A DNA stretch of 64,000 nucleotides from Terfezia claveryi (lineage: Eukaryota > Ascomycota > Pezizomycetes > Pezizales > Pezizaceae). The position numbers and the translations under genes are program-made. The stretch covers positions 361,181 through 425,180 of the forward strand of contig WHUX01000032.1 of assembly GCA_015179025.1 (NCBI GenBank), read 5' to 3'. Numbering within the stretch: position 1 is the stretch's first letter; every line of letters begins with the position of its first letter. The notes below the pieces were generated by a model that had not been told where the DNA came from, ran no database searches, and was given only the letters and a program-made list of their open reading frames with translations. Below are positions 3,493-57,016 of the stretch, piece after piece.

Positions 3493-4343
3493 TACTGAGA
3501 TGTAAAGGTAGACCTATCTCAGCGATTCCAGGATTAACTAAGATAATCACCACATAGACTGTTCTCATGCTCGGATGGACCTGTAGCTTTGCAAGTGAGG
3601 CTTAAGGGATATAAAAGGAGGAAACTCAAATAGAATGCAACTAGCTTTTTCTATACCCCCAAAAACGCAGTCTTGGACGTACATTATTCACACTATAGCC
3701 TCCGGTCTTATTGTAGTTACCACCGTGAGGTAATGCTGACATTGGTGGAAGTTTGGCGAGGCTCTCGAAACTGGTCGCGTATAGCAATCCAGAGGTCGTT
3801 TAAGAGACCTTGCAGCTCATTCTTCTCGGTTTTTTCGTCTGAGCCTGTCGCTGGATTGACTCAAGGGGAAATATCCCATTCCAGGCGACTGTTTGAGGGG
3901 TCAAACCAACTTTGAGTCCTAAACGAACAATATGTGAGTATTTGCATCGTGAAGCTCAATAACATATCGCTGCACCTCTGGATGAAGCATGCGGGAAAGA
4001 GTACCATTTTCAATCAAGATCTACCTACTATAATCAAATGAGACTCCCCTCCTCTGAATCGATGCTCACCGGCTTGAGCAGTGCAACCAAACATGGAGTC
4101 TGCGTAATTCAACCTCGACAGTACCTAGATAGGAGACTGTGGCTATGATCTGTTGAATGTAGACGTTTGTAATTGATTACAGATGTTTATGCATGTGGGG
4201 CAACGGAGGCCATGTCGGGATTGCATCATTCTCAAGATCATGGAATCTTCATCTACCATTCCACCAATGCTGGAATATCGAGGACTGTAAGAGCTATACG
4301 TCATGTGCTTGATTGATTCAACCTGACGAGCCTCTTTGAAGAG

Positions 4344-4365
4344 TAGACTCTGGTTGGCACAACAA
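4344..4365 (+). mobile_element. TAGTCTGG-type micro-insertion (22 bp)
   Basis: The insert begins TAGACTCTGGTTGGCACAA and is flanked by TTTGAAGAG at 4335-4343 and 4366-4374. R1 copy 3 reads straight through the equivalent site (CCTCTGAAGAG, then a short link, then the shared GAAAGATCTCAG) without an insert. This is a filled/empty comparison with a 9-bp target duplication. Confidence 0.75.
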
Positions 4366-5050
4366 TTTGAAGAGCTCTTCCGTAGGAAAGATTTCAGGGT
4401 TGGATTACTTCAGAACAAGCCACGTGCGGCCTGGAAAGAGAGAAGAAAGCAAGGAGAGACGGCCTTTAAGAGGAGGCGTCGTGTCAAGCAGACTCATTTA
4501 GAGACTCGGGCCGAAGCTGCTTGGTTTGCGGGACTAGGTACATCTTGAGTGCGTGAAGAACAAAACAAAGTATTCTAGCTAACAGTGACTTCTAGTATGG
4601 TACTCTCGAGCGGAGACTACTATGTACTGGTACACATCAACGATCAGTCACCAAAGTCATGTCCTCACCATTGAAGTTCTCTTAGACCCTTCACTCTCAG
4701 TAAGTAAAAGTGAAGGGAGCCTGCACACCAACGTCAAGGTGGAACTTCATCGTGCAGGTCCCACCTCGCACGCAACCCTCCCTTCAAGCCCGGGGGGGCT
4801 ACTACGGACCTACAAGGGCTACGTCCCTAAGGCCAGGGGCTTGAAGGGAGGTCGGGTCATCAGTGGTAGGACAGGTGAGGCCCCCTGTCCGAAGCGGTGA
4901 GGAGAGAAGAGAAGAGGGAGGAAGAAGGGTTTATATAGGATTTTGGGCCTGCGCCAAGGATTTCCTAGCATTGCTGAAGAGCGGGCTTGGCAAAGAATTG
5001 CCCAGAGGTTTATCTTATCAGGAGACCTATCTGTTGGCAGCGGGCTTAAG

Positions 5051-5061
5051 GTAGTCTGGTT
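5051..5061 (+). mobile_element. TAGTCTGG-type micro-insertion (11 bp)
   Basis: The insert GTAGTCTGGTT is flanked by GGCTTAAG at 5043-5050 and 5062-5069. R1 copies 2 and 3 have the uninterrupted GCGGGCATGAGGGTTA and GCGGACTTGAGGGTTA here. Confidence 0.65.
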
Positions 5062-5112
5062 GGCTTAAGATAATCGAGAGGCGCGAGACGACCTATCTGT
5101 GACTGTGAAGAT

Positions 5113-6184
5113 ATCCAGCATGCGACGGGGTAATGCAACACTCGGAGACTTGGTATATGTATCTTAGTGGATTTTCATGGGAATTGGGAAGAGGGGAACT
5201 GAAGCTCAAAGTCAATGCCAAGACCCGATATATGATATTTCCTAATATGGAGATATTATGAGGTGAGTAACTTAGTCTCGATCGGACCCTCTTGAAAATG
5301 GAACATGACGCAGTCTCAAGGCATTATGTTCTTGACAAGACTTGCCGCAGGATTTATGCCTTGGACCATGATGAATAACAGAGGTAAGCATGGATATTTG
5401 TAGGAGTTTCAGGGCAATCATCTCTGGGAAAGGTCAATCAAACGAAGTCACAATGGAGTAATCAGTAGCTCTGATAATTCTCCATTACGGGTATCGGTTT
5501 GAGCTATTGGGTGTAGGGTCTGGGCTTCCGCTGGTAAATAGTGAACAACCAGTGCTCCTGGCTGTGGGACAGTTAATCGGTGCCAAAGTAATATTGCGGA
5601 ATAGTTCTCTCATAAGTAAATTAGGGCTTTTGGATATCATAGAATGCTTTGGAATTAATACAATACAATCAAGAAGCCAACAAGATTTGGATCAGCATTA
5701 TCACATTGAGCAAGCTACCACTACCAAATGACCGGAAACAGTAAAGCTGGTCACTTAGTACGGCCAGAGACAAATTGGGAATGGTTATAGTAGAGATTCT
5801 GATAGCAAGATATTGGCTAGCTTGTCTATAGTTACAAATTAATCCCAAATATATGTTAGGATATATAATAATCAATTTGGGGGAAAGGGGGGGGGGGCGC
5901 CATGGGATAAATATTTGAGGGTTTATCACTTAGTACGTCACCTGATCTGTCATCCATGTGGTGGTCCCATTACTTCCCTTCCAGTGGTTATAATCCTTCA
6001 TAATCACCCCTCACCTCTTCAGGGACCTCTCGGAGGTCTTTGGTTCGTGCTTTTTCGATTCCGTCCACCCTGGGCTCTCGTTAGTCTGGTTCGCACATCT
6101 CTCGTAAAGGCCAAACTCGTCCGAAATGCCATCTGACCTACAACCCTGTGGTGATCCGCATCCCGGTGATGAATGATAATTGCT
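5113..6184. other. Spacer between R1 copies 1 and 2
   Basis: About 1.07 kb of unique sequence between the two direct R1 copies. It has no recognisable gag, pol or transposase, and no clear tRNA primer site next to copy 1. A poly-G run lies at about 5887-5897. If R1 is an LTR, this would be a very short or decayed interior; equally it may be ordinary DNA between two independent insertions. Confidence 0.5.
6082..6098 (+). mobile_element. TAGTCTGG-type micro-insertion (17 bp)
   Basis: TAGTCTGGTTCGCACAT is flanked by CTCTCGT at 6075-6081 and 6099-6105, a perfect 7-bp duplication. Confidence 0.7.
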
Positions 6185-8007
6185 TTACTGGAACGTAAAG
6201 GTAGACCTATCCAGGGATTTCCGGAGATTAGCTAAGATCATCACCGCATAGACTGTTTCATCCTCAGGTGGATCTGTACCTTTGCAAGTGAGGCTTAAGG
6301 GATGTAAAAGGAGACACCCCAAATAGAATACAACTAGATTTTTCTATTCCCTACTAAAACACGTGACTTGAACATACATAATTCACACTATAGCCCCTGG
6401 TCTTATTGTAGTTACCACCGTAGGTAGCGGAATGGGTTGCGTATAGCGAGCCATCTGGATGCGAAACAAGGATGTAATTGTTTCCCAGATGTCATTTAAG
6501 AGACTTTGCAACTCACTTGCCCCGTTTTCTTCGTCTGAGCCAGTCGTTGGATTGACCCAAGTCGAATCTCCCATTCCAGAAGACTTTTTTTTTAGAAAAA
6601 ATCCAAAAAAAAATCTCATACTCCTATTCGATCTCAGGAGGGGGACCACGAGGGGCCACCCGGAAACCCAGGTGGATCAAGTTAATCTGCCAGGTCCATC
6701 GCTAGAAATAATAAACTCGATTCCAGAAGACTATCTGAGGGGTGATCCATAACTTTAAGACCTAAACGAACAATATGTGAGTATTTGCGTGGTGAAGCTC
6801 AATAACATTATCACTGCATCTCTGGGATTAAGCATGCGGGAAAGAGTACCTTTTTCAAGACGTTTCCTGTATCTCCTCAAGATTCAGCTACTATAAGCAA
6901 GTGAGTCTCTCCTGCCCTGAACCGATGCGCAACGGCTTGAGCAGTGCAACTAAAAATGGAGTTTGCTTAATTTATCCTCGACACTGCCTAGATAGGGGTC
7001 CGTGGCCATTCTGTTGAATTTAGATGCTCGTAAAGTTGATTCAAGATGTCTATATTATGAGGCAACGGAGGCCATTGTCGGGATTGCATCATTCTCAAGA
7101 TCAGGGATTATGATCTATACATTCGGGGAAGAAGCCACTGTTGCATATGCCGAGCGACAACCTCACCCCCCAATCTCACACACTGGCAGTAGGAAAGATC
7201 TCAGGATTGGATTATTTCAGAACAAGCCGCGGGCGGTCTGGAGAGAAAGGGGAAGAGTGCAAGAAGAGACTGCCTTTGAGAGGAGGCGTCGTGTCAACCA
7301 GACTTATTTATAGAGTTGGGAAGAGGCTACTTGGTTTGCGGTTACCTGAATGTGTGAAGAACAAACATACTATTTGACTTCTATATAGTATGGCTGGCAC
7401 CCTCGAGCGGAGACTATGCACTGGTACACATCAACAATCAATCACCAAAGTCATGTTCTCACCATTGAAGTTCTCTTAGACCCTTCACTTTCAGCAAGTA
7501 AAAGTGAAGGGAGCCTGCACACCAACGTCAAGGTGGAACTTCATCGTGCAGGTCCCACCTCGCACGCACCCTCCCTTCAAGCCCGGGGGCCTACTACGGA
7601 CCTACAAGGGCTACGTCCCTACCTACGGCCAGGGGCTTGAAGGGAGGTCGGGTCATCAGTGGTAGGACAGGTGAGGCCCCCTGTCCGAAGCGGTGAGGAG
7701 AGAAGAGAAGAGGGGGGAAGAAGGGTTTATATAGGATTTTGGAGCCTGCGCCAAGTATTTCCTGCATTTCTGAAGAGCGGGCTTGGCAGAGAATTGTACA
7801 GAGGGATATCAGGAGACCTATCTGTTAGGAGTGGGCTTGGCAGAGAATTGTACAAAGGGTTATCAGGAGACCTATCTTTGGGAGCGGGCATGAGGGTTAC
7901 TGTATCAGGAGGCACGAGACGACCTATCTGTGGCTGAGTACATATCAGGCTCCCGATACCAGGCTAGACACCAAGTAAACATACGAAAGTCTTCCGGGCA
8001 AGTGGGA
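6185..8007 (+). repeat. R1 dispersed repeat, copy 2
   Basis: Aligns with copy 1 from the shared GTAAAGGTAGACCTATC to the shared CACGAGACGACCTATCTGTG, then continues to about 8007 in common with copy 3 (CTTCCGGGCAAGTGGG). It has the same TATA-like box (about 7726). A GC-rich fold-back at about 7562-7651 consists of CTCCCTTCAAGCCC and its complement GGGCTTGAAGGGAG. A 134-bp LINE tail (6586-6719) and its target duplication interrupt it; copy 1 keeps the uninterrupted site near 3868. The 7790-7880 part has two tandem units of about 55 bp (GAGCGGGCTTGGCAGAGAATT). Confidence 0.7.
6586..6719 (-). mobile_element. LINE 3' tail, 134 bp, with 13-bp target duplication
   Basis: ATTCCAGAAGACT at 6573-6585 is repeated at 6720-6732. 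The insert starts with a T-run (A-tail of a minus-strand element), then carries the family's conserved 3' end (CTCCTATTCG, GCCACCCGGAAACCC, AAGTTAATCTGCCAGGTCC). R1 copy 1 has only one CATTCCAGGCGACT at the matching place (about 3871), so the pre-insertion site is visible. Confidence 0.85.
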
Positions 8008-8533
8008 CTTGCATGGAATTCGTCATCGAGATGTTCGTCTTGTCGGACCATCTAATAGGAGGAGGTTGTGCTATTGGCATTGAAGGGCACCACCAGAACT
8101 GTGTAGCTTATGTTACCCTTCCACAGTCAGTTATATCATCAACTCGTTTCACTCTATTGTTTTGCAGTATACCTAAGTTAAATCCTAGAGGTAGATTAGG
8201 AGTGGTGTGAGAAGGTGTGGGAGGCCCTACAGTGAGAGGATAAGAACGTGGTTTTTACGGGGCTTTGGGTTCCTCTACAGATACATATTCCTCCCTATAT
8301 GTAGGTTTTTTATTTCGTTTTGGGGTGAGACGGCAGGGCCCGGCTTTGGGTTGGAAGATCTACCAGGCTCGCCCCAGGGATGCGGTCTCTGGTCTAGGTT
8401 ACAATAACCTGAATATTAGTCTGGCTTGTGAAAAGGAAAGTTAAAGCCTACATAATTACACCTCACTAGAATATTCTCTACGCCTTCCCAACGACCTTCC
8501 CTTTCTTATCCACAAGGTAATATACCCTCTCTC

Positions 8534-8560
8534 TAGTCTGGTTGGCACAAGCCCCTCCTC
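8534..8560 (+). mobile_element. TAGTCTGG-type micro-insertion (27 bp)
   Basis: The insert begins TAGTCTGGTTGGCACAAG and continues CCCCTCCTC. It is flanked by ACCCTCTCTC at 8524-8533 and 8561-8570, a perfect 10-bp duplication, though the target is low-complexity. Confidence 0.65.
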
Positions 8561-8570
8561 ACCCTCTCTC

Positions 8571-23930: not shown

Positions 23931-24197
23931 TTTCTTAATTTTATTTATTTATTTATAAATGCTCATTACTCCTATTTGGTCCCTGTAAGGAGACCTTGAG
24001 GAGCCACCCAGAAATCCGGGTGGATTCAGGGACAAGGCAAGTTAATCTGCCAGGTCCGACACTAAACACCACAATATGACACATAACATGTAACGAATCT
24101 CAAGCACACCTAAGGGCAACAAATAAGAGGTCGAATTATAACAAATAGGAACTCAAATGACACGGAGCCCCTGTGCTGTCATTAACCGGCTAGATGC
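23931..24197 (-). mobile_element. LINE 3' tail, 267 bp, with 14-bp target duplication
   Basis: TACCACCTGGAGTT at 23917-23930 is repeated at 24198-24211. The insert begins with a T-rich tail, then TTACTCCTATTTGGTCCCTG, the GCCACCCAGAAATCCGG hairpin and AAGTTAATCTGCCAGGTCCG, and ends in the more internal 3'-UTR part (GCTGTCATTAACCGGCTAG). This is a 5'-truncated copy without coding sequence. Confidence 0.85.
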
Positions 24198-33790: not shown

Positions 33791-34054
33791 AAGAAAGAGA
33801 TAAAAGCGGGGACTTCAGCATGCAGATGGGATTTTGGCTCAAGTCAGGGCTGGCTTCTAGATTTACCTTTGGGATTTATATCTTGGCTGATGTATTGACG
33901 TATGTGTTCTATTACCTTTTTCTTATAGAGTAAAGTTCGAGGACAAAGGGACAATACTTATGCCTTTTAGGGAATTTGTCTTATTTGGATCGAGAGTGCA
34001 ACCTGACTAGGATCGAGACTACTTATTTGGCAAAGTTTGGATCCTACTTTACCT

Positions 34055-34083
34055 TAGTCTGGTTGGCACAACCCCCCCGGAAC
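34055..34083 (+). mobile_element. TAGTCTGG-type micro-insertion (29 bp)
   Basis: Begins TAGTCTGGTTGGCACAAC, then a C-run and GGAAC. Flanked by CTTTACCT at 34047-34054 and 34084-34091, a perfect 8-bp duplication. It is the longest simple insert seen. Confidence 0.75.
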
Positions 34084-34407
34084 CTTTACCTACTGGTTGT
34101 GCATAAGGTACCTGTGCCAACGAGTAGATCTACACAAGGTACTACATACAGCAGTCTGTTTACAAATCCTAAACCTCATTAGTTAGCTTTGGTCCGTGCT
34201 CTATCATTCCTGACTGACAGTTTTTCATTCTTGAGCCGGAGTGCAAACTTCAAGGTTATCAGAGAAGTACTTGGTTCCCGAGACTGTTCGATATATGTGG
34301 TCTTCCCTGAGCACGTATGATAATAATATCAATAACATAAATAGCAAGCAGTCTTTATGTTAATAAACGGTTCTTATTTATAGTTGAAATTAGCCTCTTA
34401 ACCAAAA

Positions 34408-35621: not shown

Positions 35622-37335
35622 GAGTTAGCTACTGGCATTTAAGGTGTGAGGACGGAGGTATTAGCTCTACTTGCAATTCCTATAATAGTTATCTATGAAC
35701 AAGCTTAGTCCTAGCTTTTGGGCTCTGCGATACTAAGTACCCCGTGCCATAGACCAACATTACTGATATACCTACGGATGTATCCAGCCCGCTGTGACGG
35801 GTGAACTTCTAGAAAATTTTTGTAACTATGCAGTCCTCATACGCTCAAGGAACTGCGGAGAGGAAGACGTCTGCATGAGAGTCCGGCGCCTCATTCGTTT
35901 GCCAATTCTAAACGTTGTGGATTATCTAGATAATCCATTCCCATAATATACTGAGGGGTTACATTGCCGCATAACACTCTGTCCCATCTAGTTTTTCTTC
36001 GTACTCCTAGGCATCTGATATTGGTGTATTGGTAAATATGGATATTGGTTCGCAATAACGATACCTGTGAACATTAACAGTTTTTCCAGGCTCATCCTCT
36101 TGACCATATTCTTAGATGTGTTCTCAGCGCAACCCGCATTATCCAAACCTACTTTCTTCCAAAGTGTGCCCTGGTCTGTATCAACCTATGCCATGTTCCG
36201 CTTTTGAGAACATTCTGGCCTGAACGTAGGTTAGACCTGAGGGTTGAGATTGGCGATTTTGTCCATCATTCAGTTGAGCCTCCTGGTTCAGAGTCACCCT
36301 TCCAATTATATATAGAGCTCCCTGGGATAAGTGGTGGGTTCTGTAGTGAAGGAATTGAAGATAGCATCGTAGCATGTAATTCATCTCTTTATCCTGGGGC
36401 ACTATAGCTCCTGAATCCTCATGATACAACACCAAACCCGAAACCGACTTTCTGTCTTTTGGGAGAAGTAGTCTGGTTCGCACGGGAGAAGCTCCAAACG
36501 CGCTCTCAGGTCGAGTTATAGATAGTCGCGCCGCCGCCTTATTATTCACCCTATTCTGGATCAAATCTCCTCCCTAAATTTTCTCAATATCAGTCCCAAG
36601 CTTTCTCGAAGTGTATCCACATTGGGTATTCTTGCAAACATATTTCACCTCGCCATCCAGAACGTCATATTTTTCTTGTTCCGACACTCCCATCGATATC
36701 GTTTGCCATCCTAGAAGTAGTTGTCAAGATTAAGATACAAGCCCAAAGTAATTTGTTTCCACCAGGATAAGCTCCTAATCCTCCCACCTCCGTGTGCATA
36801 ACAATGAACTCTGCAAAAAAAGCAGTCCAACGACTCATCAACCTAGTGGCACGGCGATTGCACACAAATCCACCTTATATCCCCTCCCATCTCTCTCCCC
36901 TGTCCCTTCCTTTCTGTCTTCCTCCCTAGTCAAAATTCACCCATGCAAATCCCACACAAACAACACATCTCGAAATAGTCAAACGAATAAGTCAAACGTC
37001 AAAAATCAACCATTTCAAACGTCCACAAAAGCCCAAGAACAAATTAACTGTTGATATCTGATTTCAAAAATGGGTGAGAGCATACTTAGCTATATCATCT
37101 TCTCATTTGAGCTACTGAGTGGTGGAGATGGGTTTGACAAGAGCAAACCGCCCTGACATCAAACCACCTCAAACTTCACACCCCACACATTTCCTCGTTT
37201 TTTTTCCCCTCATTGTATTCTCATTAGAAACCTTTTTCCTTCAACCTTCTGGTTTTTATTTTCTTACCAGTCAAATACTCCTTTCAGCAATAATGCTTCT
37301 CTTGCGTTCATTCATAACTAACAAACATCTTCTAG
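35622..37335. other. Anonymous stretch with one micro-insertion
   Basis: A minus-strand frame 36181-36564 (127 aa) and an overlapping plus-strand frame 36204-36407 have no recognisable domain. The minus-strand frame runs through the micro-insertion at 36469. 37150-37320 is pyrimidine-rich and probably belongs to an intron upstream of the next gene (CATAACTAACAAACATCTTCTAG acts as branch and acceptor). Confidence 0.35.
36469..36483 (+). mobile_element. TAGTCTGG-type micro-insertion (15 bp)
   Basis: TAGTCTGGTTCGCAC is flanked by GGGAGAAG at 36461-36468 and 36484-36491, a perfect 8-bp duplication. Confidence 0.8.
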
Positions 37336-42600: not shown

Positions 42601-43593
42601 ACCACATATTGCCCTCTTAGATGCAGTTGTCGCGGATGAATCACAAGCACTAAGTCTTGGTGACAGCCATGACAATTCTTCCGCAAACGGCAGGGTATCT
42701 CCGCAAAACTTGAGGTGGCTTAGAACGAACATTCCCATTCCTGAAACTCCCCAGGGGTCCATGCTCTCTGAATTCGAGAATCCAGTGGACACGGGTCAGG
42801 TTGATGAGGATCCAGAAGAGTTGGCCCGGAGGCAACAAGCTGGGAATAGTGGGGATATACAGTCTATGGACGTGATTTTGCACAATGCTGAAAGGGTGGT
42901 CCACGAAGTCACATCCTCATACTATCAGGAGCCTGGTGCGGGAAGGGACGTGAGGGGATGGTTAGACCGATGTCAACTGGAACACAGGCGCCGGGTAGAA
43001 TGGGAAGTGTCGCTCCTTCGTCTAAGACCTAGAGGTTTAACGACAGAAGAATATCAACAAATGTTGTGCGACAGAGCTGAACATTGGGATCGCCTATACA
43101 ATCTAATATCCATCGGTCCTCGACCTCATCCGTCACTGACACCAATTGTTGAGGATATTGATGAAGAGGAGGGGGAAGTATTGCACACTGATGTGGAGGC
43201 AGCAACGTCACGCATGTTGGTGCCGAATCCCCTAGAGCATGGACTTCCCCGAAGAGAAACGATCGATAGGGCAGTTGAGGGGCCTGAGGACGAAATTGGA
43301 GGTCCCGATCTACCCATGACCAGCCATCGGTAGGTGCTAGCCATATCGACTCTAAATAATATTATGTCCTAACCTGTGTTTCAAGTAGCGATTGGGCTAC
43401 AGTAGGAGAGGTAGATGCTGTGGGCAGCCAAGGGGAAGAGCAAGGATCGGAGAGTAGGGAATCGGAGAATGAGGAATCGAATGATGGGTATGAGGAACTC
43501 CCAGATATTGGGAACGAAGCGGAGGAATGGCAAATGGATTGGACAGATGTTACGGATCAATCCAATCTAAGTGGCCAGTGGAAGTTTCGATGA
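39680..43593 (+). CDS. Long unknown protein, about 1285 codons, with one in-frame TAG
   Basis: The frame is open from 39680 (ATG) to 43329 except for a single TAG at 40325-40327. It is joined by a 56-bp intron 43330-43385 (GTAGGT, branch CCTAACC, TTTCAAG) to a last acidic exon ending TGA at 43591-43593. The part before the TAG (about 215 codons) includes VFSWENGHLMEPDDYFHCRV and RIPFIAIVQEVRVDGFEP. Just after it comes QPPYHKRILKQIRKELGLS, which reads as a natural continuation. The remaining thousand residues are Ser/Glu/Pro-rich and mostly disordered. They include a short tandem repeat GSNTVT (41415-41460) and a C-terminal Arg/Glu-helix region (GWLDRCQLEHRRRVEWEVSL). The TAG may be a mutation, a readthrough site, or lie in an intron (donor GAG|GTGCGT at about 40221, acceptor CATACAG at 40342, phase 0). 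No family recognised. Confidence 0.6.
41415..41460 (+). repeat. 18-bp tandem repeat in coding sequence
   Basis: About two and a half copies of an 18-bp unit (GGTAACGGGGTCAAATAC), coding TGSNTV. It keeps the frame. Confidence 0.8.
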
Positions 43594-44345
43594 GGGTTGA
43601 TATACGAAAGTATAATCAGTGGAGGTTTTTCCACCATGAAGGCTTTGAAAGAATCTTGGGGGGAGGTGGGTTGATCCCTGGGAGGCGTTCAATGAATATT
43701 ATTCATATTGCTTTTGAATTCCGGTAGGGTCATCTAGGTCTTGTTGTTCGCAGTCGTTTAAGATAATTCTAGTAAAGAACTGCTTCATGGGCGGGTAAAT
43801 TCCAGTGCTTAATAGGATCGTTGTTGTGTTTGACCAACCATAGAAGGAAGGCGGGACGACAGGTCTTGGCGTGGGTTGACTTTTTTCTTTTCATAAACTC
43901 ATTACTCAGATGATGGTCTAATCAAAAGTGTGATGCATTATCATACTATGAGCTAGCAAATGGTCGTTTAGGACGCAAATAGTGAGCCTTCCGCTTATCT
44001 ACTTCTAAGGGATCGTCACATTCATTCAAATTTAAACCAACATTCGATGTTTAATTTTTCCCAGTTAGAGGATATTTCTAATGCTATTGCTGTACACAAG
44101 TAACAGTAAGTAAAGTTTTGTACTTATAATTATTCTTCATAATACTAGTTTGATATAGTAGGTACTATAGGCTTTAAGATTGAGGCAGAACGAGTTAATT
44201 GAGGCTGGCTGGATCTGTTTGATAACCAGACTATGTTTTAATGTGGCTTGGTTGGTTTAATTGAGACTAGACGGGTCTAATTGAGGCCGGGTGGGTTTTA
44301 TTTAGCCTCGTATTAACCAGTCTGTTGTCTTTGGGGGGAGTTGCG

Positions 44346-44361
44346 TGCCAACCAGACTAGA
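44346..44361 (-). mobile_element. CCAGACTA-type micro-insertion (16 bp)
   Basis: TGCCAACCAGACTAGA (complement of TAGTCTGGTTGGCA) is flanked by GAGTTGCG at 44338-44345 and 44362-44369. Confidence 0.75.
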
Positions 44362-44410
44362 GAGTTGCGAGGTCAAAAATATGATCTGAATACGGGGCAA
44401 GGTTTTATTT

Positions 44411-44420
44411 CAACCAGACT
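44411..44420 (-). mobile_element. CCAGACTA-type micro-insertion (10-11 bp)
   Basis: CAACCAGACT(A) is flanked by AGGTTTTATTT at 44400-44410 and 44421-44431. The duplication is 10-11 bp, depending on which side the shared A is counted. Confidence 0.75.
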
Positions 44421-45059
44421 AGGTTTTATTTAGCTTTGGCGGGTCTGATTTAGGTTTTCATATGTTCAATAGGTATCGGTTTGTCATTAGTTGTATTTGC
44501 CTTAAATTTTGTTCTGATTCCGGCTGGTCCTTGCTCTTATATTCTGAGTTAATATAAGGTGGTTTCGAGAAACTCACGTAAACCTATATAAGCTTGTTCC
44601 CAAGAGCCCGTATCGGGTGATTCCGAGCAAGTCATATAAGCTCATAAAGCCTTTTTCCAATAGTCCGTAACATATGATCACAAGAAACTCATCGCCTTCA
44701 ATCGGAGCTTGCTCTAAACTATCTTCACAGTTATCTATATAAACTACCATTTCTTTCGATTCCCACTTCTGCTGTCTCCCATGATTGCATTGCATAGTCT
44801 TTACACTGTCTGCTTGGCACAGGCCCCTCCGTAGGGAGGTCCTCTTTATGTTCAACTTCTATTATAAAACAAAAAGAATCCCCTCAATTTAATTAAGTAA
44901 TGCAGGATTATGGAGTTGAACGATTTGTTGGCGCTAACGCCACGGTGAACGGTTTGGCGCAATTGCGGATAGCGCCCCATTGACAAATCGATATGGGCTA
45001 GAACCGGACCATGATGAGCCACCCCGCGTGGATTCGGACAAGCTGCAACTACGAGGAGT

Positions 45060-45613
45060 GCACCCCTATCTATGTAGTAGTGACCCCTCCGTGGCACGAG
45101 ACTACAACCAGACTACCCCTCCATACCCCTCCATACCTCCATATACTCTGGTTGGCACAAGCTAGTCTGGTTGGCACAAGCCCCTCGTAGAGGCCCTCCA
45201 TACGCCCTATCGGACAGTCAGAGACTAGTAGGTTCCCCTGTGCCAACCAGACTAGGTCCCCTACCTTTGATCGAGTCTTATCTGGTTGGCACAAATCAGA
45301 CTACTCGTAGAGAACAACTAGTCTGGCGGGGGGCTTGTGCCAACCAGACTACAACTAGTCTGGTTAGAACAACAACCTCCTTTGCCTTAGTCTGGTTGCC
45401 TTTGCCTATCACCCTTGTGCCAACCAGGCTAGTCTCTGCTTTAGCGATGCGAATGGCTAGTGTCTTGGCATGAGACTACAACCAGGCTACCTATCACTAG
45501 CCTCGTAGTAACCAGTCTGTTGTCTCTTGGGATTTGCGACGTCACGAAACCTGGGTACGAGGTAGTGCAAGCCAGACTAGGTACGAGGCTAACCTATCAC
45601 CCCCTCCTGTGGA
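45060..45613. repeat. Cluster of nested TAGTCTGG motifs
   Basis: At least ten copies of TAGTCTGGTTGGCACAAG or its complement lie in both orientations within about 550 bp. Examples are about 45145, 45164, 45242, 45280 (partial), 45337, 45355, 45393 (partial), 45416 and 45561. Head-to-head pairs occur (AACCAGACTACAACTAGTCTGGTT at about 45341-45364). Several copies continue with GCCCCTCGTAGAGG or its complement. No coding sequence; frames through it are artefacts. Confidence 0.75.
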
Positions 45614-45627
45614 GGGTATTGCAACCA

Positions 45628-48063
45628 TTTTTTTTTTTTTTTAAAATACTCAGTACTTCTATGCAGCCTCGTTAGGGAGACTATGAGGAGCCACGCGGAA
45701 GCCCAGTGGATTCAAGGGAGAGGCAAGTTAATCTGCCAGACCCACGCAAACGATACTAGTTACATAGACCTGGGCGAGGCCCCGTGCTATCATGAACGGA
45801 CTATCCGATGACTCGAAAGCCTGACTAAGCCTCACCTCCAAATAAAGAACTTGTGAAAGGTGAACTGAAATAAAAAGTACTAAAGGACTGCAGATCCTGC
45901 GGAAAGACGATGGAACAAAATAGATGGCATTTTGAACAAAGGGGACTCGTAAGTATATGGTGATGGTGTACTCAGTGAGCTTGAATCTCCGCTCTTTAAG
46001 TAAGCGCACGGAATAGTAGCCCGAAAAAGGCCTCTGTGGCCTCGAATGCCTCCTCTCCCTCTCCCCTCCATACCAGCTTGTCGAGCTCTTCCCAGCTATT
46101 TTTCCCCTCTAGAAGGTTCCTCCGGGGCTGGTCAAAGCGTGGGCACTCGAATACGATGTGTTCTCCAGTTTCGGATGGATGTCCGCATGTGCACTCAGCT
46201 GACTCTGCTTTGCCGATGTGTTGAAGCTAACTCTTTTGTGGGCCTCTGTTTGTTCATAGCCAGGTGTAGGCCGATAGGGCGTGGCGGTTCCATTCTACCC
46301 TTCTAGCACCGTATCCTGCTTTTGTCCTTGCTTCCTTATGTGTAGCGTTGGAGGAAGCACGGAGACCCCCTTCTGTTATTGTCTGCCTTCGGCCTATGAA
46401 TTCTCCTAGGTGGGATTGGAGAGCCGCGGTCCGGTCTGCTATTTCATTGCCTGGGATGCCCAAATGGCCCCTGACCCATGATAACTGGAGGTCCCTGTGT
46501 GGATTACTGATAATGAGGGAGTTTATTTCTTTCTCAATACCGGATCTGGGGGGTGAGCCTGAGCTCATGTTGCGAACAGCCTGGATTGCTGCCTGGGAGT
46601 CCGATAGAATCGCCAGCATAACTGAATCCTCTTTACCTAGGGTAAGTTGCATAGCAAATAGCTCGCTGTCTGCTACTGTTGCCTGAACTCCTAAGAATCC
46701 GCCGTAAGTTTTCGCACTGCCACCTGTCCGGTCCATGCTGTATATCCTGCTTGCTGTGACACCTTTCCGTCCTGTGCCATCCATGTAGCAGGTTCTCCAA
46801 CCTTCTTCTAGGATTGATCCTATGCCGGCTGCCCAGGGGCCTATGTATTTAGAGGATTCGGATTGGGGGTCAATGATTTCTCTGTAAATCACTGGGAAAG
46901 GAGTTGTATCTTCTCTATCCCCCCATGATATTTCTTCTAAGTCTGCCCCGTTTAGGAAGAAAGCCTCCGATATGGCAGTTCTTGTGTGGTGTAGGTTATT
47001 GCCGTGTTGCCATAAGGTGTCCTCCTGTATGTAGGCTATTGTCTACTTGTCCCCCGTCCTGTGCGCTTCATGTCGTTTACTTGCGTTTTGCAATGGTTGA
47101 TCCTTGCTTTATCATGAAAGTCCAGTCTAGATTCCTTACTCGTGTCCCATTGAAGTTCGTTTTGTTGTGCTGTATCTTTGAGGATAGTGGTAACTTCTCG
47201 GACTAGCTGGTTGTGTCTTCTGGTACTCAAGCTACTTATAATCAATGGGTTGATATTGTCCACATATGAATAGAGCTGAATACTGGAGAGAAGGGGTAGT
47301 GTTGTGTTTCTTGTCCTTCTTCTTAAGCTGCTTCTCGTTACCAGCTTGGTATACTCATCACATTTTTCCGAAATTGTATTGAGAGTGTGGCCTATGTAGA
47401 TGAGCCAGATGACTGGGGATAAAGGACTACCTTGAGGAGCCCCCTGGTCCATGTGCCCTTGACCTCTTATGAGATTGTCCCACTGGATTAGGAATGATCG
47501 TAGTCGGAGGAACTTGTCTACAAAGTGTATTATTCTTTCAGGGATGCTGGCTTCTTATAGAATCTGGATGAGTTTATTAGTCCTCACATTATTGAAGGCT
47601 GAGACTATATCCTTTCCCAGTAATGTAGCTTTTCTTTTCCCTTGTATTGCTCTTTCTGCTGAGGAGACTGTGAGCATCATTGCGTCGGTTGCCGACCTTC
47701 CTTTCTGTGAGCCATATTGGAGAGGGTAGAAGAGCTTTGTCTGGAGTTGTAGCTCATCTGCTATCAGCTTTTCTGGTAGTTTGCTAATTGTGTTGGATAA
47801 GACGATAGGTCTCCATCCTTTGACTTGGGTGTGGTCTCTTCCCGGTTTAGGTATCATAACCATAGAGAGGTTTCTCCATGATGTAGGCACTAAAGCTCCT
47901 CCTTTTGCAACTCTTGCCATGTCGTTATAAGGGCTGTGCCTAGCTCAGTGTCCTTGATGAGCTTGATTAGTCGATAAGAGATTCTGTCTGGTCCTGGAGC
48001 CGAGCTATTCGATGTCTTTGCTAGAGCTCGGATTATTTTGTGGATCGTTATAGGCTCTGCTAA
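45628..48063 (-). mobile_element. Tad-like LINE, 5'-truncated and inactivated, with 15-bp target duplication
   Basis: The 2436-bp insert is bounded by AGGGTATTGCAACCA (45613-45627) and AGGGTGTTGCAACCA (48063-48077), one mismatch. The A-tail is the T-run at 45628. The minus strand encodes reverse transcriptase pieces: NSSAPGPDRISYRLIK, MVMIPKPGRDHTQVKGWRPI, LQYGSQKGRSATDAM, LGKDIVSAFNNV and GAPQGSPLSPVIWLIY. These lie in three frames (48114-47890, 47920-47555, 47452-47036). RNase H (46892-46254) is open and keeps YMDGTG, DSELFAM, LSDSQAA and GHLGIPGNEIAD. The catalytic YADD box reads YVDN, a missing second Asp. ORF1 and the endonuclease are absent. RT followed by RNase H is the Tad-type order of fungal non-LTR elements. 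Confidence 0.85.
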
Positions 48064-48530
48064 GGGTGTTGCAACCAGACTACTATCACCAACTACTAGT
48101 CCCATGCCAACCAACCCAAGGGTCTTGGCATGAGACTAACCAACTACCAGGCCCATTCTCAGATGAACTTCACTGACTAAGCATGGGAAAACCTCCTTAG
48201 GACAAACCCATGCTCCTTCGCTGTTAGGAAATCTTTTTGAGGAAGGCAGGATTCGAACCTACGAACGCAATTGCATTCACCAGGATGGTTCATGCTCCTT
48301 GGCTATTGGGAAGCCAGGGTTGACTTGTGTAGAGCGTAGAGGTCTACTGAGCACCCAGCAGTAGAGTACACCGAGGTACTGTACACACGCCTTGCTGGCA
48401 GGAATACAGGGACTAATACATTCCGTGCGAGATCTCTTTGTCAGGCCGTCTACGAGAGGTGGGAGCCTGCCGGACTAACAAACCGTTTCATTCATCTATT
48501 TTGCGTGAGACTTCCCCAACAAGCTGTTTC
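48064..48530. other. Right flank of the LINE and motif cluster
   Basis: The motif cluster resumes directly after the LINE (GCAACCAGACTACTATCACC, CATGCCAACCAACCC, CTTGGCATGAGAC). Two related segments (CATGCTCCTTCGCTGTTAGG, CATGCTCCTTGGCTATTGGG) lie at about 48209 and 48292. No gene. Confidence 0.5.
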
Positions 48531-48585: not shown

Positions 48586-48607
48586 TATTTGACATTATGT
48601 CCTTCAG

Positions 48608-48626
48608 ACGTGTGCCAACCAGACTA
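48608..48626 (-). mobile_element. CCAGACTA-type micro-insertion (19 bp)
   Basis: ACGTGTGCCAACCAGACTA is flanked by ATTATGTCCTTCAG (48594-48607) and ATTATGTCCTACAG (48627-48640), 13 of 14 matching. The left copy overlaps the right duplication of the neighbouring LINE micro-tail, so this insertion came after it. Confidence 0.85.
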
Positions 48627-48670
48627 ATTATGTCCTACAGCCTCATTTTGGCCTCTTATATTCCCTGTAG

Positions 48671-48705: not shown

Positions 48706-48768
48706 GTCGCCGGGCAGGCAGATTAACTTGTGAATCCACCCGGGCTTCCGGGTGGATCATCATCGCCG
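48706..48768 (+). mobile_element. LINE 3'-UTR fragment
   Basis: Has GGCAGATTAACTTGTGAATC and the CACCCGGGCTTCCGGGTGG hairpin of the LINE 3' end, but not the A-tail. It is therefore broken on both sides. Confidence 0.65.
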
Positions 48769-49429
48769 TATGTATTAAAACAATCCTGTTTTTTCCCAGT
48801 TGAATTGTATCACTGGCTCTCCCACTTTGGTGCTGTTTTGAGCCGCCCGCAGTGCCACCTCGGCGGCCTGGGGGAGAGAGGTTTCCCTTCACTCCTTTAC
48901 CCATTCCTATTCTCAGAATACCCATCCCATCCATTGCCATCACCGGAGGTCCTGCTTCTTCAAGATCTATATCGGTTCTGGTTTCTTCGGCTAGCGCTAA
49001 GCTCCCCAAACCAAGCAATCAAAGCGGGGTGTTCGCTAGTTAGTTGGCAGGTGAATTAACATTTCCCTTATCTTTTGGTTTCCGAGAAATGGGGCTGTTT
49101 GATTGGGATGGGGAGTAAATTGTGTTCGTCCATACCAAGTACACAGCCTCGTATCCTGCTATTGTTCTGCACAGGGCGGTTTATTGATCACCTCTTATCT
49201 GTTCCTAGTCTGGTTATCTGTTCCTGTTGATAGGCGGCGACAAGATGGTTGGTACCCCGGCCGGCACCCCTCTTATCTGTTCCTGTTGATGGCGGCGACA
49301 AGAGGGTTGGTACCCTAGTGTGCGGCGGCGTAATATAAATTCCAGTAGTTTCCCTTCCTTCTTGTCTTCTTTTCTTCTGAACCCCACATTTCGTCGATAT
49401 ACTGTTCCTTCTGTGTCAAGAAATCCGCT
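48769..49429. other. Anonymous stretch with 60-bp duplication
   Basis: 49193-49315 holds two copies of CTCTTATCTGTTCCTGTTGA..GGCGGCGACAAGA.GGTTGGTACCC. The first carries an 8-bp micro-insertion and the second does not. No gene seen. Confidence 0.5.
49206..49213 (+). mobile_element. TAGTCTGG micro-insertion (8 bp)
   Basis: TAGTCTGG sits between TTATCTGTTCC copies (49195-49205 and 49214-49224). The tandem duplicate at about 49273 reads CTCTTATCTGTTCCTGTTGA without it, giving a local empty site. Confidence 0.8.
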
Positions 49430-50045
49430 TCACTTCTATCTTCTTGATTCAGAGAGAACAACTCAGAAAAGACATCTACGATCCGTGAGGAACGTAAGCT
49501 TTCCTTCTGCTTATCGACTCCCCTTCTGTGCCTTTACGGCACTTACATCTACACTTTCCCACTTCACTTCTATTTTCTTGATTCAGAGAGAACAACTCAG
49601 AAAAGACATCTACGATCCGTGAGGAACGTAAGCTTTCCTTCTGCCTATCGGCTCCCCTTGCCTTTACGGCACTTACATCTACAATTTTCCACTTCACTTC
49701 TATCTTCTTGATTCAGAGAGAACAACTCAAAAAAGACATCTACGATCCGTGAGGAACGTAAGCTTTCCTTCTGCCTATCGACTCCCCTTCTGTGCCTTTA
49801 CGGCACTTACATCTACAATTTTTCACTTCACTTCTATCTTCTTGATTCAGAAGGAACAACTCGGAAAAGACATCTACGATCCGTGAGGAACGTAAGCTTC
49901 CTTCTGCCTATCGACTCGCCTCCTGTGCCTCTACAGCACTTACATCTACACGTTTCCACTTCACTTCTATCTTCTTGATTCAGTGAGGAACTCAGAAAAT
50001 ACATTTACGAGCCGTGATAAACGTAGGCCTCCTTCTGCCTATCCA
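49430..50045. repeat. 133-bp tandem repeat, five units
   Basis: TTCTTGATTCAGAGAG-type landmarks recur at about 49441, 49575, 49704, 49839 and 49972 (spacing 129-135). Each unit has ACATCTACGATCCGTGAGGA and a small hairpin GTGCCTTTACGGCAC. The last unit is the most divergent. It ends about 290 bp before the start of the next gene. Confidence 0.85.
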
Positions 50046-50336
50046 CTTGATTATGTTCATGCATATTGACTGATTAGTGGAGATATATATAGCCGATATA
50101 TTCCGAACCCTTAAGCCCCAAAAGGGCCTTTTCAGCAACTTTACATTCATAAACTTCACGGTATGTTTTTCTCATTAATGGTAGTACCTATTGTATCCCT
50201 ACCACACTGGCGTGTCCCATTGATTGACTTTCGATCATGGAACTAAGTACTGTATTTGAGGCCTCTTGCTTTCGCATTTAGAGATAGTCAAGCGGTCCAC
50301 TTGAAGTGGGAAAATTCACTAATACGTGCATCTTAG

Positions 50337-54525: not shown

Positions 54526-55345
54526 CTTTTTTTTCTTTTTTCTTCTAAAAACTCATTACTCCTATTCGGTCCCAGTAAGGAGGCCATGATGAATTCAGGG
54601 ACAAGGCATGTTAATTTGCCAGGTCCGATGCTAAGTACATAAAGTGGGATCGAGGTCCCATACTGTCATTGTCCAATGAGCCAGAGGTGCCTGACTGAGC
54701 CTCGACCCGGAAATAAAACCTGTAAATCGGAGGATAAGGACACTTCGTAATTATAGGCCTGGACACGAGCCGGTTTGTAAAATTGAAAAATAAACCAAAA
54801 TCCCGAACCGAAGGAACATTAAAATTCCGAACGACCTATCGTAAAAGGGAACTCGTCCAAGCAAAGCTAACTAGACCATCCGCAAGTATTAGGTGAGCTC
54901 ATGATGGATGCAATTAAAGAAGGCCTCCGTGGCCTCAAAGGATTCATGCCCCCTCCTTCCTCCACTCCGGCTTGTGCAGCTCTTCCCAGCTGCGCTTGCT
55001 CCCCAGGAGGCTGGCTCTCAAGCGTCTAAATCGTTCACAATCGAAGGTATGTAATGTGCTGTCCGTTCTCCACCGGGTGTTCACATCCGCAAGCCCTGGA
55101 TTCTGCTTGCCGATGTGGCACCTCCAGCTTTTGAGGACTTCGATCTGTCCGCATCCAGGCATAAGCTTAGAGTGCCTATCGTCCCATTCGCACCTTCTTG
55201 CCCCGAATCCCTCTTCATCCCCTTACTGGGACTGAATAAGAGTAACAAGTATTTTAAAAAATAAAAAAAAAATTGCCCCGAATCCCGCCTTGGTCCCGGC
55301 CTCCTTTCGGATGGCTTTGCAAGCCGCTTGTAGGCCCCTTGGGTT
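54526..55345 (-). mobile_element. LINE 3' fragment with RNase H remnant
   Basis: T-rich tail at 54526, then TTACTCCTATTCGGTCCCAG and TGTTAATTTGCCAGGTCCG. The minus strand encodes the end of RNase H and the following Cys/His region (ACKAIRKEAGTKAGFGA, then RHIGKQNP-like and RSWEELHKPEWRKEGA) with frameshifts. A second LINE tail (55212-55272) is nested inside it. Flanking duplication not identified. Confidence 0.7.
55212..55272 (+). mobile_element. Nested LINE micro-tail, 61 bp, with 14-bp target duplication
   Basis: TTGCCCCGAATCCC at 55198-55211 is repeated at 55273-55286. The insert ends GAGTAACAAGTATTTT plus an A-rich tail, the family's 3' terminus, in opposite orientation to the host LINE. 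Confidence 0.85.
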
Positions 55346-55429
55346 ACTGATACACAACCAAATGGGGTGGTGCTCGACTAACGAGGATTGGCTTTTAGAC
55401 AAATATGGGGGTATGAATGTTAGATGCTG

Positions 55430-55692
55430 TTCCACCAGGTGCAAAGGTCATTGGCACCAAGTGGATGGGTATTGAAACTAAAAGATGAAAAAGTACCGGG
55501 GTACTTCAAGAGGTTTAAAGCCGCCCCAACAGTAAGAGGGTTCACACAACGAGCCGGCATCGACTACCTCGTTGCCTATGCTCCTGTTTGTAGAGAAAAA
55601 AGTTTCTGATTCTGATCTGTCTATCGCTGACTAGACGTATGGGCACTTAAGCAATCCGATATTGAAGGTGCTCTTCTGAACGGCCCTCTGTA
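55430..55692 (+). pseudogene. Copia-type reverse transcriptase remnant
   Basis: Translates to SGWVLKLKDEKVPGYFKRFK, VRGFTQRAGIDYLVAYAPV and, after a frameshift and stop, ALKQSDIEGALLNGPL. These match in order the start of copia RT (KWVFK.K, ARLVA.GFTQ..G.DY...(F/Y)APV, L.Q.DV..AFLNG.L). The rest of RT is gone; R1 copy 3 begins about 120 bp later. Only about 80 codons remain. Confidence 0.7.
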
Positions 55693-55815
55693 AGATATTG
55701 TATGTCAGAGACCTGCGTGCTATAGGCAATTGGGCATGGAAGCAGTAACTTATTACTGTGCCAGTGGGGCACTGTGGACAACTGGTATTGCTTATGGCGT
55801 TGTGCTTCGTTGTTT

Positions 55816-57016
55816 GCCCACTTGCCCGGAAGCGAATGCGTTATCATTCGTATGTGTCGGGAGCCTGCTATGTCCTCAGCCACAGATAGGTCGTCTCGCG
55901 CCTCCTGATAACCCTCAAGTCCGCTCCTAACCTCTGTACAATTCTCTGACAAGTCCGCTCCTAACAGATAGGTCTCCTGATATCCCTCTGTACAATTCTC
56001 TGCCAAGCCCGCTCTTCAGCAATCAGGAAATCCTTGGCGCCAGCTCCAAAATCGTATATAAACCCTTCTTCCCTCCTCCTCTCTTCTCTCCTCACCGCTT
56101 CGGACAGGGGGCCTCACCTGTCCTACCACTGATGACCCCGACCTCCCTTCAAGCCCCTGGCAGTAGGGACGTAGCCCATGTAGGTCCGTAGTAGGTCCCC
56201 GGGCTTGAAGGGAGGGTTGTGTGCGAGGTGGGACCTGCACGATGAAGTTCCACCTTGACGTTGGTGTGCAGGCTCCCTTCACTTTCACTTGCTGGAAGTG
56301 AAGGGTCTAAGAGAACTTCAATGGTGGGGACTAGTTCTGGTTGGCACGGCGAGGACTTGACTTGGTGTTTGATCGTTGTGTACCCCAGTGCAAAGTAGCC
56401 TCCGCTCGACAGTGCCAGCCTGATCGAGACTATGCCAGCCAGACTGTACTAGAAGTCAGTGTTAGTTAGAATAGTTTGTTTGCTCTTTCACTGCAAACCA
56501 AGTAGCCTCGGCTCCAGTCTCTAAATTGTCTGGTTGCTCTCTCTACCCCTCGCAGCTCGCCTTTCTCTCCAGACCGCACGCGGCTTGTTCCGAAGTTATC
56601 CAGCCCTGAGATCTTTCATACGGAATAACTCTTCAGAGGTCGACAACAAACAAGCACGTGACCTTTTCTTTTTTTTTTTCAGTTTTCAGCATCGGTGAAA
56701 TGGATAGATCAATATTCCACGATCTTGAGAATGATGCAATCCCGACAATGGCCTCCGTTGCCCCAAAGTATAAGAGCTACATAAACACCTTCAATCAACT
56801 TTACGAATGTCTAGCTTGAATGGTCATAGCCACGGTCTACTATCTAGATACTCTGTACTGTCGAGGATTAACTACCCAGACCCCGTAGGCTGCTCAAGCT
56901 AGTGCGCACCAATTCAGGGGAGGGGAGTCTCACTTGATTATTGTACATAGCTGGGTCTTGAGGAGATACAGGAAGGCCTTGAAAATGCTACGCTTTCCCG
57001 TATGCTTCATCCCAGA
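55816..57016 (-). repeat. R1 dispersed repeat, copy 3 (inverted, partial)
   Basis: Inverted match to copy 2 from about 6830 to 8007, including the TATA-like box (about 56055), the CTTCAAGCCC fold-back and the TTCACTTTTACTTGC segment. It stops near 57015, where copy 2 continues, so it is truncated. It serves as the empty-site reference for two insertions in copy 1 and carries its own micro-insertion at 56332. Confidence 0.7.
56332..56352 (+). mobile_element. TAGTTCTGG-type micro-insertion (about 21 bp)
   Basis: TAGTTCTGGTTGGCACGGC plus two bases is flanked by GGAC at 56328-56331 and 56353-56356 (six bases with two mismatches if extended). R1 copies 1 and 2 have CATGTCCTCACC / CATGTTCTCACC here without an insert, seen on the other strand. 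The duplication is short but the empty site is clear. Confidence 0.65.

What the first reader, a model, noticed from the sequence alone, without database searches (positions are those of the whole stretch)
4335..56356. Dispersed 8-29 bp insertions with a constant TAGTCTGG end and target-site duplications
At 12 sites a short sequence starting TAGTCTGG(TTGGCACAAG...) or its complement lies between direct repeats of 4-14 bp. Sites (insert; duplication): 4344 (TTTGAAGAG), 5051 (GGCTTAAG), 6082 (CTCTCGT), 8534 (ACCCTCTCTC), 34055 (CTTTACCT), 36469 (GGGAGAAG), 44346 (GAGTTGCG), 44411 (AGGTTTTATTT), 48608 (ATTATGTCCTWCAG), 48671 (TGTAG), 49206 (TTATCTGTTCC), 56332 (GGAC). One end is constant and the other varies in length, as in 5'-truncated retro-insertions anchored at a fixed 3' end (...AACCAGACTA). 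Known MITEs and SINEs are much longer and have two fixed ends or a tail. I know of no described element of this kind; novelty is inference.
Basis: partly seen in the sequence, partly recalled or inferred. Interest (0 to 1): 0.93.

Follow-up and report, generated by a model that had tools for sequence, protein, structure and literature searches.

The report
Thousands of one-ended tiny transposon scars
This fungal genome is peppered with thousands of tiny insertions, mostly 8-36 letters long, that keep only one end of a mobile element between two copies of a nine-letter landing site; they are most likely leftovers of a cut-and-paste DNA transposon whose intact form was not found.

Summary
TAGTCTGG occurs 30 times in the window against 2.1 expected. 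Genome-wide, TAGTCTGGTTGGCAC occurs 2885 times and TAGTCTGGTT 7569 times, against 0 and 161 for the patterns read backwards. The flanking repeats are not 4-14 bp but essentially 9 bp: 11 of the 12 listed sites fit a 9-bp duplication with at most 2 mismatches. At five sites a related copy lacks the insert.

Retro-insertion is not supported. The 9-bp targets of one-ended inserts are reverse-complement symmetric, centred on the duplication (p 0.0003 for clean sites with perfect duplications). That is expected when a DDE-type transposase joins both ends of an inverted-repeat DNA element. Rare two-ended forms (30-54-bp near-palindromes) exist; 23 of 43 examined carry the duplication. One-ended inserts peak at 10, 14-15 and 27-34 bp.

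Best reading: scars of transposons with terminal repeats TAGTCTGGTTGGCAC..., inserted by both ends and then reduced to one end, probably by excision with a long staggered cut as in P elements (inferred). No intact parent was found; the three transposon families whose ends I could read end differently, and most families were not read.

The parts
4335..4374 (+). insert of 22 bp at 4344-4365 (TAGACTCTGGTTGGCACAACAA, two extra bases in the constant end) between perfect 9-bp duplications
   Evidence: a related copy lacks it (alignment)
5043..5070 (+). 10-bp insert TAGTCTGGTT at 5052-5061, 9-bp duplication with 1 mismatch
6073..6105 (+). 15-bp insert TAGTCTGGTTCGCAC at 6082-6096, 9-bp duplication with 2 mismatches
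8525..8570 (+). 28-bp insert (27 if the duplication is read as 10 bp), perfect 9-bp duplication
34046..34091 (+). 28-bp insert, 9-bp duplication with 1 mismatch
36460..36491 (+). 14-bp insert with 9-bp duplication (1 mismatch), or 15 bp (TAGTCTGGTTCGCAC) with a perfect 8-bp one
44336..44368 (-). 15-bp insert TAGTCTGGTTGGCAC at 44345-44359, 9-bp duplication with 1 mismatch
44401..44430 (-). 12-bp insert, perfect 9-bp duplication (extends by chance)
45084..45124 (-). 23-bp insert TAGTCTGGTTGTAGTCTCGTGCC at 45093-45115, 1 mismatch; possibly two nested inserts
45315..45360 (-). 28-bp insert at 45324-45351, perfect duplication, in a cluster of overlapping inserts
45379..45407 (+). 11-bp insert TAGTCTGGTTG at 45388-45398, perfect 9-bp duplication CCTTTGCCT
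45554..45588 (-). 17-bp insert at 45563-45579, perfect 9-bp duplication
48088..48147 (.). 42-bp two-ended imperfect palindrome of a sister family (TAGTCTCATGCCAAGACCC...) at 48097-48138, perfect 9-bp duplication ACCAACTAC
48594..48635 (-). 24-bp insert, perfect 9-bp duplication
49197..49224 (+). 10-bp insert TAGTCTGGTT, perfect 9-bp duplication
56323..56356 (+). 16-bp insert TAGTTCTGGTTGGCAC (15-bp class with one extra base), 9-bp duplication with 2 mismatches
   Evidence: absent from both related copies

Best explanation
The inserts are remnants of cut-and-paste (class II) DNA transposons with terminal inverted repeats beginning TAGTCTGGTTGGCAC. Step 1, supported by the 9-bp duplications, their two-fold symmetric sequence preference and the empty sites: a DDE-type transposase joined two identical ends to target strands 9 bp apart. 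Step 2, shown as a pattern: in most copies all but 8-36 bp of one end is gone while both target copies remain. Step 3, inferred: this happened by excision with a long staggered cut, one strand at the element border and the other about 15 nt inside the inverted repeat, so each flank keeps a 3' tail of element sequence. Repair usually joins one tail to the recessed end of the other flank (one-ended scar of 15 bp, or 10 when trimmed), rarely keeps both tails (palindromic scar), and sometimes keeps a longer tail ending near a mini-hairpin (27-34 bp). The intact element is rare, absent, or not among the loci sampled.
For: Fixed 9-bp duplication. Reverse-complement symmetry of the target in one-ended inserts: all 102, p 0.0003; clean 85, p 0.0010; clean with perfect duplication 55, p 0.0003; short 46, p 0.014; two-ended 22, p 0.0013; shifted centres -0.086 to 0.036 against 0.0945. 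Related copies without the insert at five sites. Sharp 15-bp class: 17 of 92 at 15, 6 at 14, 1 at 16, 2 at 17, 0 at 18-22. Two-ended forms are made of two arms of the same inverted repeat, 15 + 15 bp in L036; 23 of 43 carry the duplication. P elements leave 17-nt 3' extensions (passages of PMC7776569 and PMC10983969).
Against: No intact parent was found. The long class (39 sites) shows symmetry only at p 0.087. 20 of 92 one-ended inserts measure 35-54 bp and are not explained by the three classes; I take many to be adjacent inserts. Two 40-49-bp two-ended sequences each occur identically at two places with different flanks (L095/L098, L105/L109), which fits mobile micro-elements better than independent scars. 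The only P-type search gave nothing and its control was silent; THAP domains are said to be absent from fungi (PMC7776569 passage). A MULE tested in yeast excised precisely in about 90% of cases (PMC5225508, passage).
Confidence: 0.5

Rival explanations
1. Palindromic micro-transposons: the mobile unit is itself a hairpin-like element of about 30-54 bp (stem TAGTCTGGTTGGCAC plus AAGCCCCTC or AACACCCTC, loop of a few nt), moved in trans by a resident transposase; one-ended inserts are copies that lost part of the second arm.
For: 23 of 43 examined two-ended near-palindromes of 30-54 bp carry a duplication. Identical 49-bp and 40-bp units sit at different sites (L095/L098, L105/L109). 14 of 35 inserts of 23-36 bp end in a stem of at least 3 bp with a 3-7-nt loop, against 17% with shuffled tails, as if they ran from one arm through a loop into the second arm. 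The target symmetry fits equally.
Against: Only 46 places in the genome have two exact 15-mers facing each other within 0-30 bp against 2885 15-mers. The loss of one arm exactly to the duplication border, and the exact 15-bp class, are unexplained. Synapsis of two ends 50 bp apart is sterically doubtful (inference). L095 has only an 8-bp repeat with one mismatch.
Confidence: 0.27
2. Retro-insertion of a small RNA with fixed 3' end ...GUGCCAACCAGACUA by target-primed reverse transcription, truncated at the 5' end; palindromes would be twin priming or self-primed cDNA.
For: One constant and one variable end; hairpins near the far end; duplications.
Against: Duplication length is fixed at 9; target preference is palindromic; 15-bp class is exact; no Rfam match. 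Reverse transcriptases are plentiful but those scored look like LTR-element sized matches (inference), and none was linked to these ends.
Confidence: 0.1
3. One-ended or aborted transposition: a transposase inserts short end fragments (cut-off inverted repeats) directly, without an excision step.
For: Explains one constant end, a fixed duplication and symmetric targets, and adjacent double events (L103).
Against: No known system of this kind in a eukaryote (recalled); does not explain why the second fragment is missing with a complete duplication.
Confidence: 0.1
4. Library or assembly artefact (for example tagmentation adaptor; Tn5 also duplicates 9 bp and prefers T3/A7, recalled, no call).
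For: 9-bp duplications and a T3/A7 preference resemble bacterial Tn5 (recalled).
Against: Inserts are inherited and decayed: the same insert lies at the same place in both arms of the C773 element and in all four arms of L133 and L135, one of them mutated. Duplications and ends carry mutations and there are several subfamilies.
Confidence: 0.02

Closest known systems
P-element excision (17-nt staggered cleavage; PMC7776569, PMC10983969, passages seen)
   Same: Long staggered cut would leave end sequence as 3' tails on both flanks; fixed-length duplication; scars holding pieces of one or both inverted repeats (make-up of P scars recalled).
   Different: P duplicates 8 bp; no P-type transposase found (silent control); parent unknown.
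Mutator-like elements (Muta1, PMC5225508; maize Mu, PMC2774946; passages seen)
   Same: 8-9-bp duplications; two-fold symmetric target consensus (Mu: SW::SWNNNNNWS::WS); MULEs are present in this genome (21 matches).
   Different: The C773 MULE ends in GAGATAAC; Muta1 excision is mostly precise; here the preference is T at 3 and A at 7.
Excision footprints with filler DNA in rice (PMC4423477, passages seen)
   Same: Excision of DNA transposons leaves duplications plus short inserted stretches (average 13 bp).
   Different: In rice only 8 of 94 excisions were perfect, 43 deleted flanks and fillers are foreign DNA; here the filler is the transposon's own end and both duplications stay.
MITEs
   Same: Short, non-autonomous, inverted repeats in the two-ended forms, fixed duplication.
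   Different: Most copies have one end only; two-ended forms are 30-54 bp.
Yeast mitochondrial GC clusters (PMC4478555, passages seen)
   Same: Mobile palindromes of about 30-42 bp; a set shares one constant 13-nt end with variable remainder.
   Different: Mitochondrial; no 9-bp duplication described in the passages seen.

Membership tests
Class II TIR transposon (DDE) remnants | target duplication of fixed length | tested here: met
   9 bp
Class II TIR transposon (DDE) remnants | two-fold symmetric target | tested here: met
   long class alone p 0.087
Class II TIR transposon (DDE) remnants | terminal inverted repeats on both ends | tested here: inconclusive
   met in the rare two-ended forms, absent in the one-ended majority
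Class II TIR transposon (DDE) remnants | autonomous element with transposase and these ends | tested here: inconclusive
   none among the families whose ends were read; hAT and most MULE copies not read
LINE/SINE retro-insertion | variable-length duplication, asymmetric target | tested here: not met
LINE/SINE retro-insertion | longer parent or source RNA | tested here: inconclusive
   no match starting at the constant end longer than 34 bp in window + contig 1; no Rfam match; no transcript data
MITE | two inverted ends in typical copies | tested here: not met
   46 two-ended places (0-30 bp between) against 2885 15-mers
P element | P-type transposase | tested here: inconclusive
   PF21787 0 matches but the control was silent
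P element | 8-bp duplication | tested here: not met
   9 bp predominates
Mutator-like | MULE transposase with these ends | tested here: inconclusive
   21 MULE matches; C773 and L135 ends differ; others not read
Merlin | DDE_Tnp_IS1595 transposase | tested here: not met
   0 matches; control rang in 1 of 14 genomes
KDZ | KDZ transposase with these ends | tested here: not met
   two copies of one family end differently; the other KDZ matches were not read
hAT | 8-bp duplication | tested here: not met
   9 bp; at least 150 hAT matches exist, ends not read

The most novel reading that the evidence does not exclude
A nuclear genome has been colonised by the smallest known transposons: hairpin-forming DNA units of about 30-54 bp that a transposase acting in trans inserts with 9-bp target duplications, and that systematically decay to, or are inserted as, one-ended pieces of about 10, 15 or 30 bp, leaving more than seven thousand recognisable ends in 72.6 Mb.
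Probability: 0.25. Interest if true: 0.88.

Novelty: new variant of a known kind. Interest (0 to 1): 0.72.

Why it matters
If these are excision scars, the genome holds thousands of outcomes of one defined break, a fossil record of a transposon that may itself be gone, and they point to a fungal transposase with an unusually long staggered cut. If they are micro-elements, they set a new lower size limit for nuclear transposons. Either way, repeat annotation works with much longer units (recalled) and would probably miss them, although each adds 17-45 bp (insert plus 9).

Tried and rejected
Tried without finding a parent. (1) MULEs: C773 with 2.8-kb inverted arms ends GAGATAAC; the arms of L135 begin TGAGAAAAGC (BLAST arm border only, no duplication checked); these carry mini-inserts inside their arms and so look like hosts, not sources. 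L132 and L134 showed no such arms and I did not define their ends. (2) KDZ: 9 matches; two copies of one family (L136, L137) do not end in TAGTCTGG. (3) Merlin: 0. (4) P-type domain PF21787: 0, silent control. (5) Longer conserved end: TAGTCTGGTTGGCACAAGCCCCTCGTAGAGGGG occurs 4 times. (6) Two-ended forms of intermediate size: 18 places with 31-61 bp and 16 with 63-123 bp between facing 15-mers, against 46 at 0-30; in many the two ends belong to different subfamilies (by eye), i.e. neighbouring inserts. (7) Pairs of ends with matching 9-bp flanks up to 12 kb apart in 264 kb: 2 beyond 70 bp, with imperfect ends, which I take as chance. (8) viral contigs with a degenerate 24-letter pattern: 0. 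(9) Papers: TAGTCTGGTTGG is in 2 unrelated papers; searches listed nothing I recognised as this. The statement that it is undescribed rests on these nine searches of an open-access library only.

Considered and rejected: variable-length duplications, chance, adaptor artefact, target-primed retrotransposition.

Biases and dropped rows. The 40 loci and 20 were chosen by the exact 15-mer, so inserts under 15 bp are undercounted; in them 33 of 71 15-mers fit a 9-bp duplication with at most 1 mismatch. The 40 loci were chosen as two-ended. Of the 46 two-ended places 43 were read (C773:224804, C776:82636 and C782:101268 were not); 'carry the duplication' there means 9 bp with at most 1 mismatch or a perfect 8 bp; L075 and L101 have the same flanks, and L103 is two adjacent inserts. 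One search merged rows with the same duplication and insert. Its 102 one-ended rows include 10 of the sister ends TAGTCTC(G/A). 'Clean' dropped 17 rows outside 8-17 and 23-36 bp. One search dropped 2 of 37 inserts of 23-36 bp with a second end inside.
Full report
WHAT IS THERE. The window is position 361181-425180 of contig 246 of a 72.56-Mb assembly. Its 983-aa frame at 40382-43333 has two listed relatives, one of them a Tirmania nivea protein (59% identity), so the host is probably a fungus of the Pezizaceae (inference). TAGTCTGG occurs 30 times on both strands against 2.1 +/- 1.3 in shuffles. Genome-wide the 15-mer TAGTCTGGTTGGCAC occurs 1432 + 1453 times and the 10-mer TAGTCTGGTT 3752 + 3817 times; the patterns read backwards occur 0 and 161 times.

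TARGET DUPLICATION. The flanking repeats are 9 bp. Over 140 sites (window, 200 kb of contig 1, 40 chosen loci) perfect repeats of length 6 to 12 number 62, 56, 50, 43, 14, 6, 4. In the window 8 of 30 sites have a perfect 9-bp repeat, 13 at most one mismatch and 17 at most two; random positions give 0.46, 1.8 and 8.0%. In the window plus 200 kb, 28 of 52 TAGTCTGGTT sites fit with at most one mismatch and 37 with at most two; the rest have no recognisable duplication. Some sites read as 8 bp (L089, L100, L106 among two-ended forms), as reported for the MULE Muta1 (8 or 9 bp, PMC5225508, passages).

EMPTY SITES. The window holds three related copies of a repeat (about 4.0-5.1, 6.9-7.9 and, inverted, 55.8-57.0 kb). 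The insert at 56332 is missing from the other two. Joining the flanks of 51 sites in a script and comparing them with the fetched DNA confirmed 56332 and gave four more sites with an uninterrupted relative: contig 1 152134 (15-bp insert), contig 1 152612 (34 bp; relatives more diverged), C773:251583 (29 bp), and the insert in the C773 inverted arm. The single target copies in the relatives differ from the duplication by 0-2 bases, except at 152612. Of the other hits, the relative of 5052 is too diverged to judge, and those for 56432 and contig 1 128713 concern sites that may be chance. No other of the 51 sites had a relative among the fetched DNA.

ANATOMY. The left end is constant; the right end falls in classes. 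Of 92 one-ended inserts with TAGTCTGG there are 5 of 10 bp, 6 of 14, 17 of 15, 1 of 16, 2 of 17, none of 18-22, 5 of 23-25, 29 of 27-34, and 20 of 35-54, many of the last probably adjacent inserts. Loci chosen by the 15-mer are over-represented; in the sample not chosen by motif the lengths at most one mismatch off are 9-13 (9), 14-15 (7), 17 (1), 23-25 (3), 28 (4), 31-36 (6), of 30 (one two-ended form counts twice). Subfamilies differ after position 15 (AAGCC, AACAC, AACGA, AATCC, GACCC). Of 35 inserts of 23-36 bp, 14 have a stem of at least 3 bp at the far end, against 17% with shuffled tails; no one of 200 shuffles reached the observed mean. Two-ended forms are rare: 46 places have two exact 15-mers facing each other with 0-30 bp between. 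Of 43 read, 23 carry the duplication; they are 30-54-bp near-palindromes, for example L036 (15 + 15 bp) and L091 (51 bp); the other 20 do not. In L103 the order is duplication, 15-bp insert, duplication, reversed 24-bp insert, duplication; L085, L086 and L096 look similar (my reading). A sister family with end TAGTCTCATGCCAAGACCC has one-ended and two-ended forms, one at 48097-48138.

MECHANISM. In target-primed retro-insertion the two ends are made differently and no two-fold symmetry of the target is expected; in DDE transposition both ends are joined by the same chemistry and the target preference is palindromic (established knowledge). The targets of one-ended inserts are symmetric: 0.110 for all 102 (null -0.003 +/- 0.018, p 0.0003), 0.0945 for 85 clean sites (p 0.0010), 0.194 for the 55 clean sites with perfect duplication (p 0.0003), 0.081 for 46 short inserts (p 0.014), 0.052 for 39 long ones (p 0.087, not significant alone). 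Two-ended forms give 0.239 (n 22, p 0.0013). Eight shifted centres gave -0.086 to 0.036 for the clean set. A first test by permuting positions gave p 0.0035. So the one-ended copies appear to come from a two-ended reaction, with the second end lost later. Loss of an end with both duplications complete is what excision with a long staggered cut can leave. P elements cut 17 nt inside the end and leave a 3' extension (PMC7776569, PMC10983969, passages). By analogy a 15-nt stagger gives TSD-15 bp-TSD when one tail is kept and TSD-15+15-TSD when both are (L036). This step is inference. Muta1 excised precisely in about 90% of cases in yeast (PMC5225508, passage), so an ordinary MULE would not be expected to leave such scars.

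WHERE IS THE PARENT? Not found. In the window and contig-1 sample no match that starts at the constant end runs beyond 34 bp, and by eye the 60 loci show no shared longer interior. In 264 kb no inverted pair of ends with matching 9-bp flanks up to 12 kb apart stands out. Resident transposases and reverse transcriptases are many: RVT_1 150 scored of 2308 candidates, hAT 150 scored of 182, MULE 21, KDZ 9, Merlin 0, PF21787 0 with a silent control. The ends I could read (C773 MULE, L135 MULE arm borders, one KDZ family) are different. The three MULE loci with long inverted arms (C773, L133, L135) carry mini-inserts at matching places in both arms (in L133 and L135 the flanking repeat matches at 7 of 9 positions), so the inserts are old enough to have been copied and mutated.

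NOVELTY. Fixed-length duplications, inverted repeats and excision scars are known. What is unusual is a genome with more than seven thousand such ends, over half of them with a recognisable duplication in the sample, mostly one-ended, with a sharp 15-bp class, no visible parent, and 30-54-bp palindromes with their own duplications, two of which occur identically at two sites. Yeast mitochondrial GC clusters are comparably small and palindromic, and a set of them shares one constant 13-nt end (PMC4478555, passages), but they are mitochondrial. I rate it a new variant of a known kind; the micro-transposon reading would be more novel and is not excluded.

Noticed in passing
window 48097-48138; contig 1 141826-141835; L050; L058; L115: A sister family of tiny inserts with ends TAGTCTC(A/G)TGCC(A/C)AGACCC and 9-bp duplications, in one-ended (10, 11, 21, 29 bp) and two-ended (42 bp) form.
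   Followed up: partly
L070+L069+L071 (C773:251300-262300): A Mutator-like element with about 2.8-kb inverted arms of tandem repeats and a 575-aa frame; the arms (86-89% alike) carry the same mini-insert at the same place, i.e. the arms were copied or homogenised after the insertion.
   Followed up: partly
L135 both arms, L133 both arms: Four arms carry the same mini-insert; in one arm both flanking repeats show the same C-to-T change (ACATGACTT / GCGTGACTT), as if homogenised or mutated in parallel.
   Followed up: no
L103, L085, L086, L096: Adjacent double events using the same or overlapping 9-bp target, which suggests that existing inserts or their borders attract new ones.
   Followed up: partly
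window 44226-45579: Cluster of 11 of the 30 TAGTCTGG sites of the window in about 1.4 kb, with overlapping and nested inserts.
   Followed up: no
window 4000-5150, 6880-7960, 55850-56980 (inverted): Three diverged copies of one repeat; useful for empty-site comparison.
   Followed up: partly
window 23939-24065, 31612-31704, 45626-45751, 54529-54634, 58387-58501: Dispersed repeat of about 100-200 bp (..CTCATTACTCCTATTCGGTCCC..GAGCCACCCGGAAACCCGGGTGGATTCAGG..), also in contig 1.
   Followed up: no
window 63262-64000; 61404-61872; 49424-50047: Tandem arrays with units of 34 bp (with 46-bp variants), 24 and 15 bp, and about 130 bp.
   Followed up: no
window 45498-45591: 94 bp between perfect 9-bp repeats ACCTATCAC with inverted ends TAGCCTCGTA, holding a nested TAGTCTGG insert; a similar stretch lies at 44303 and in contig 1 near 73900.
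   Followed up: no
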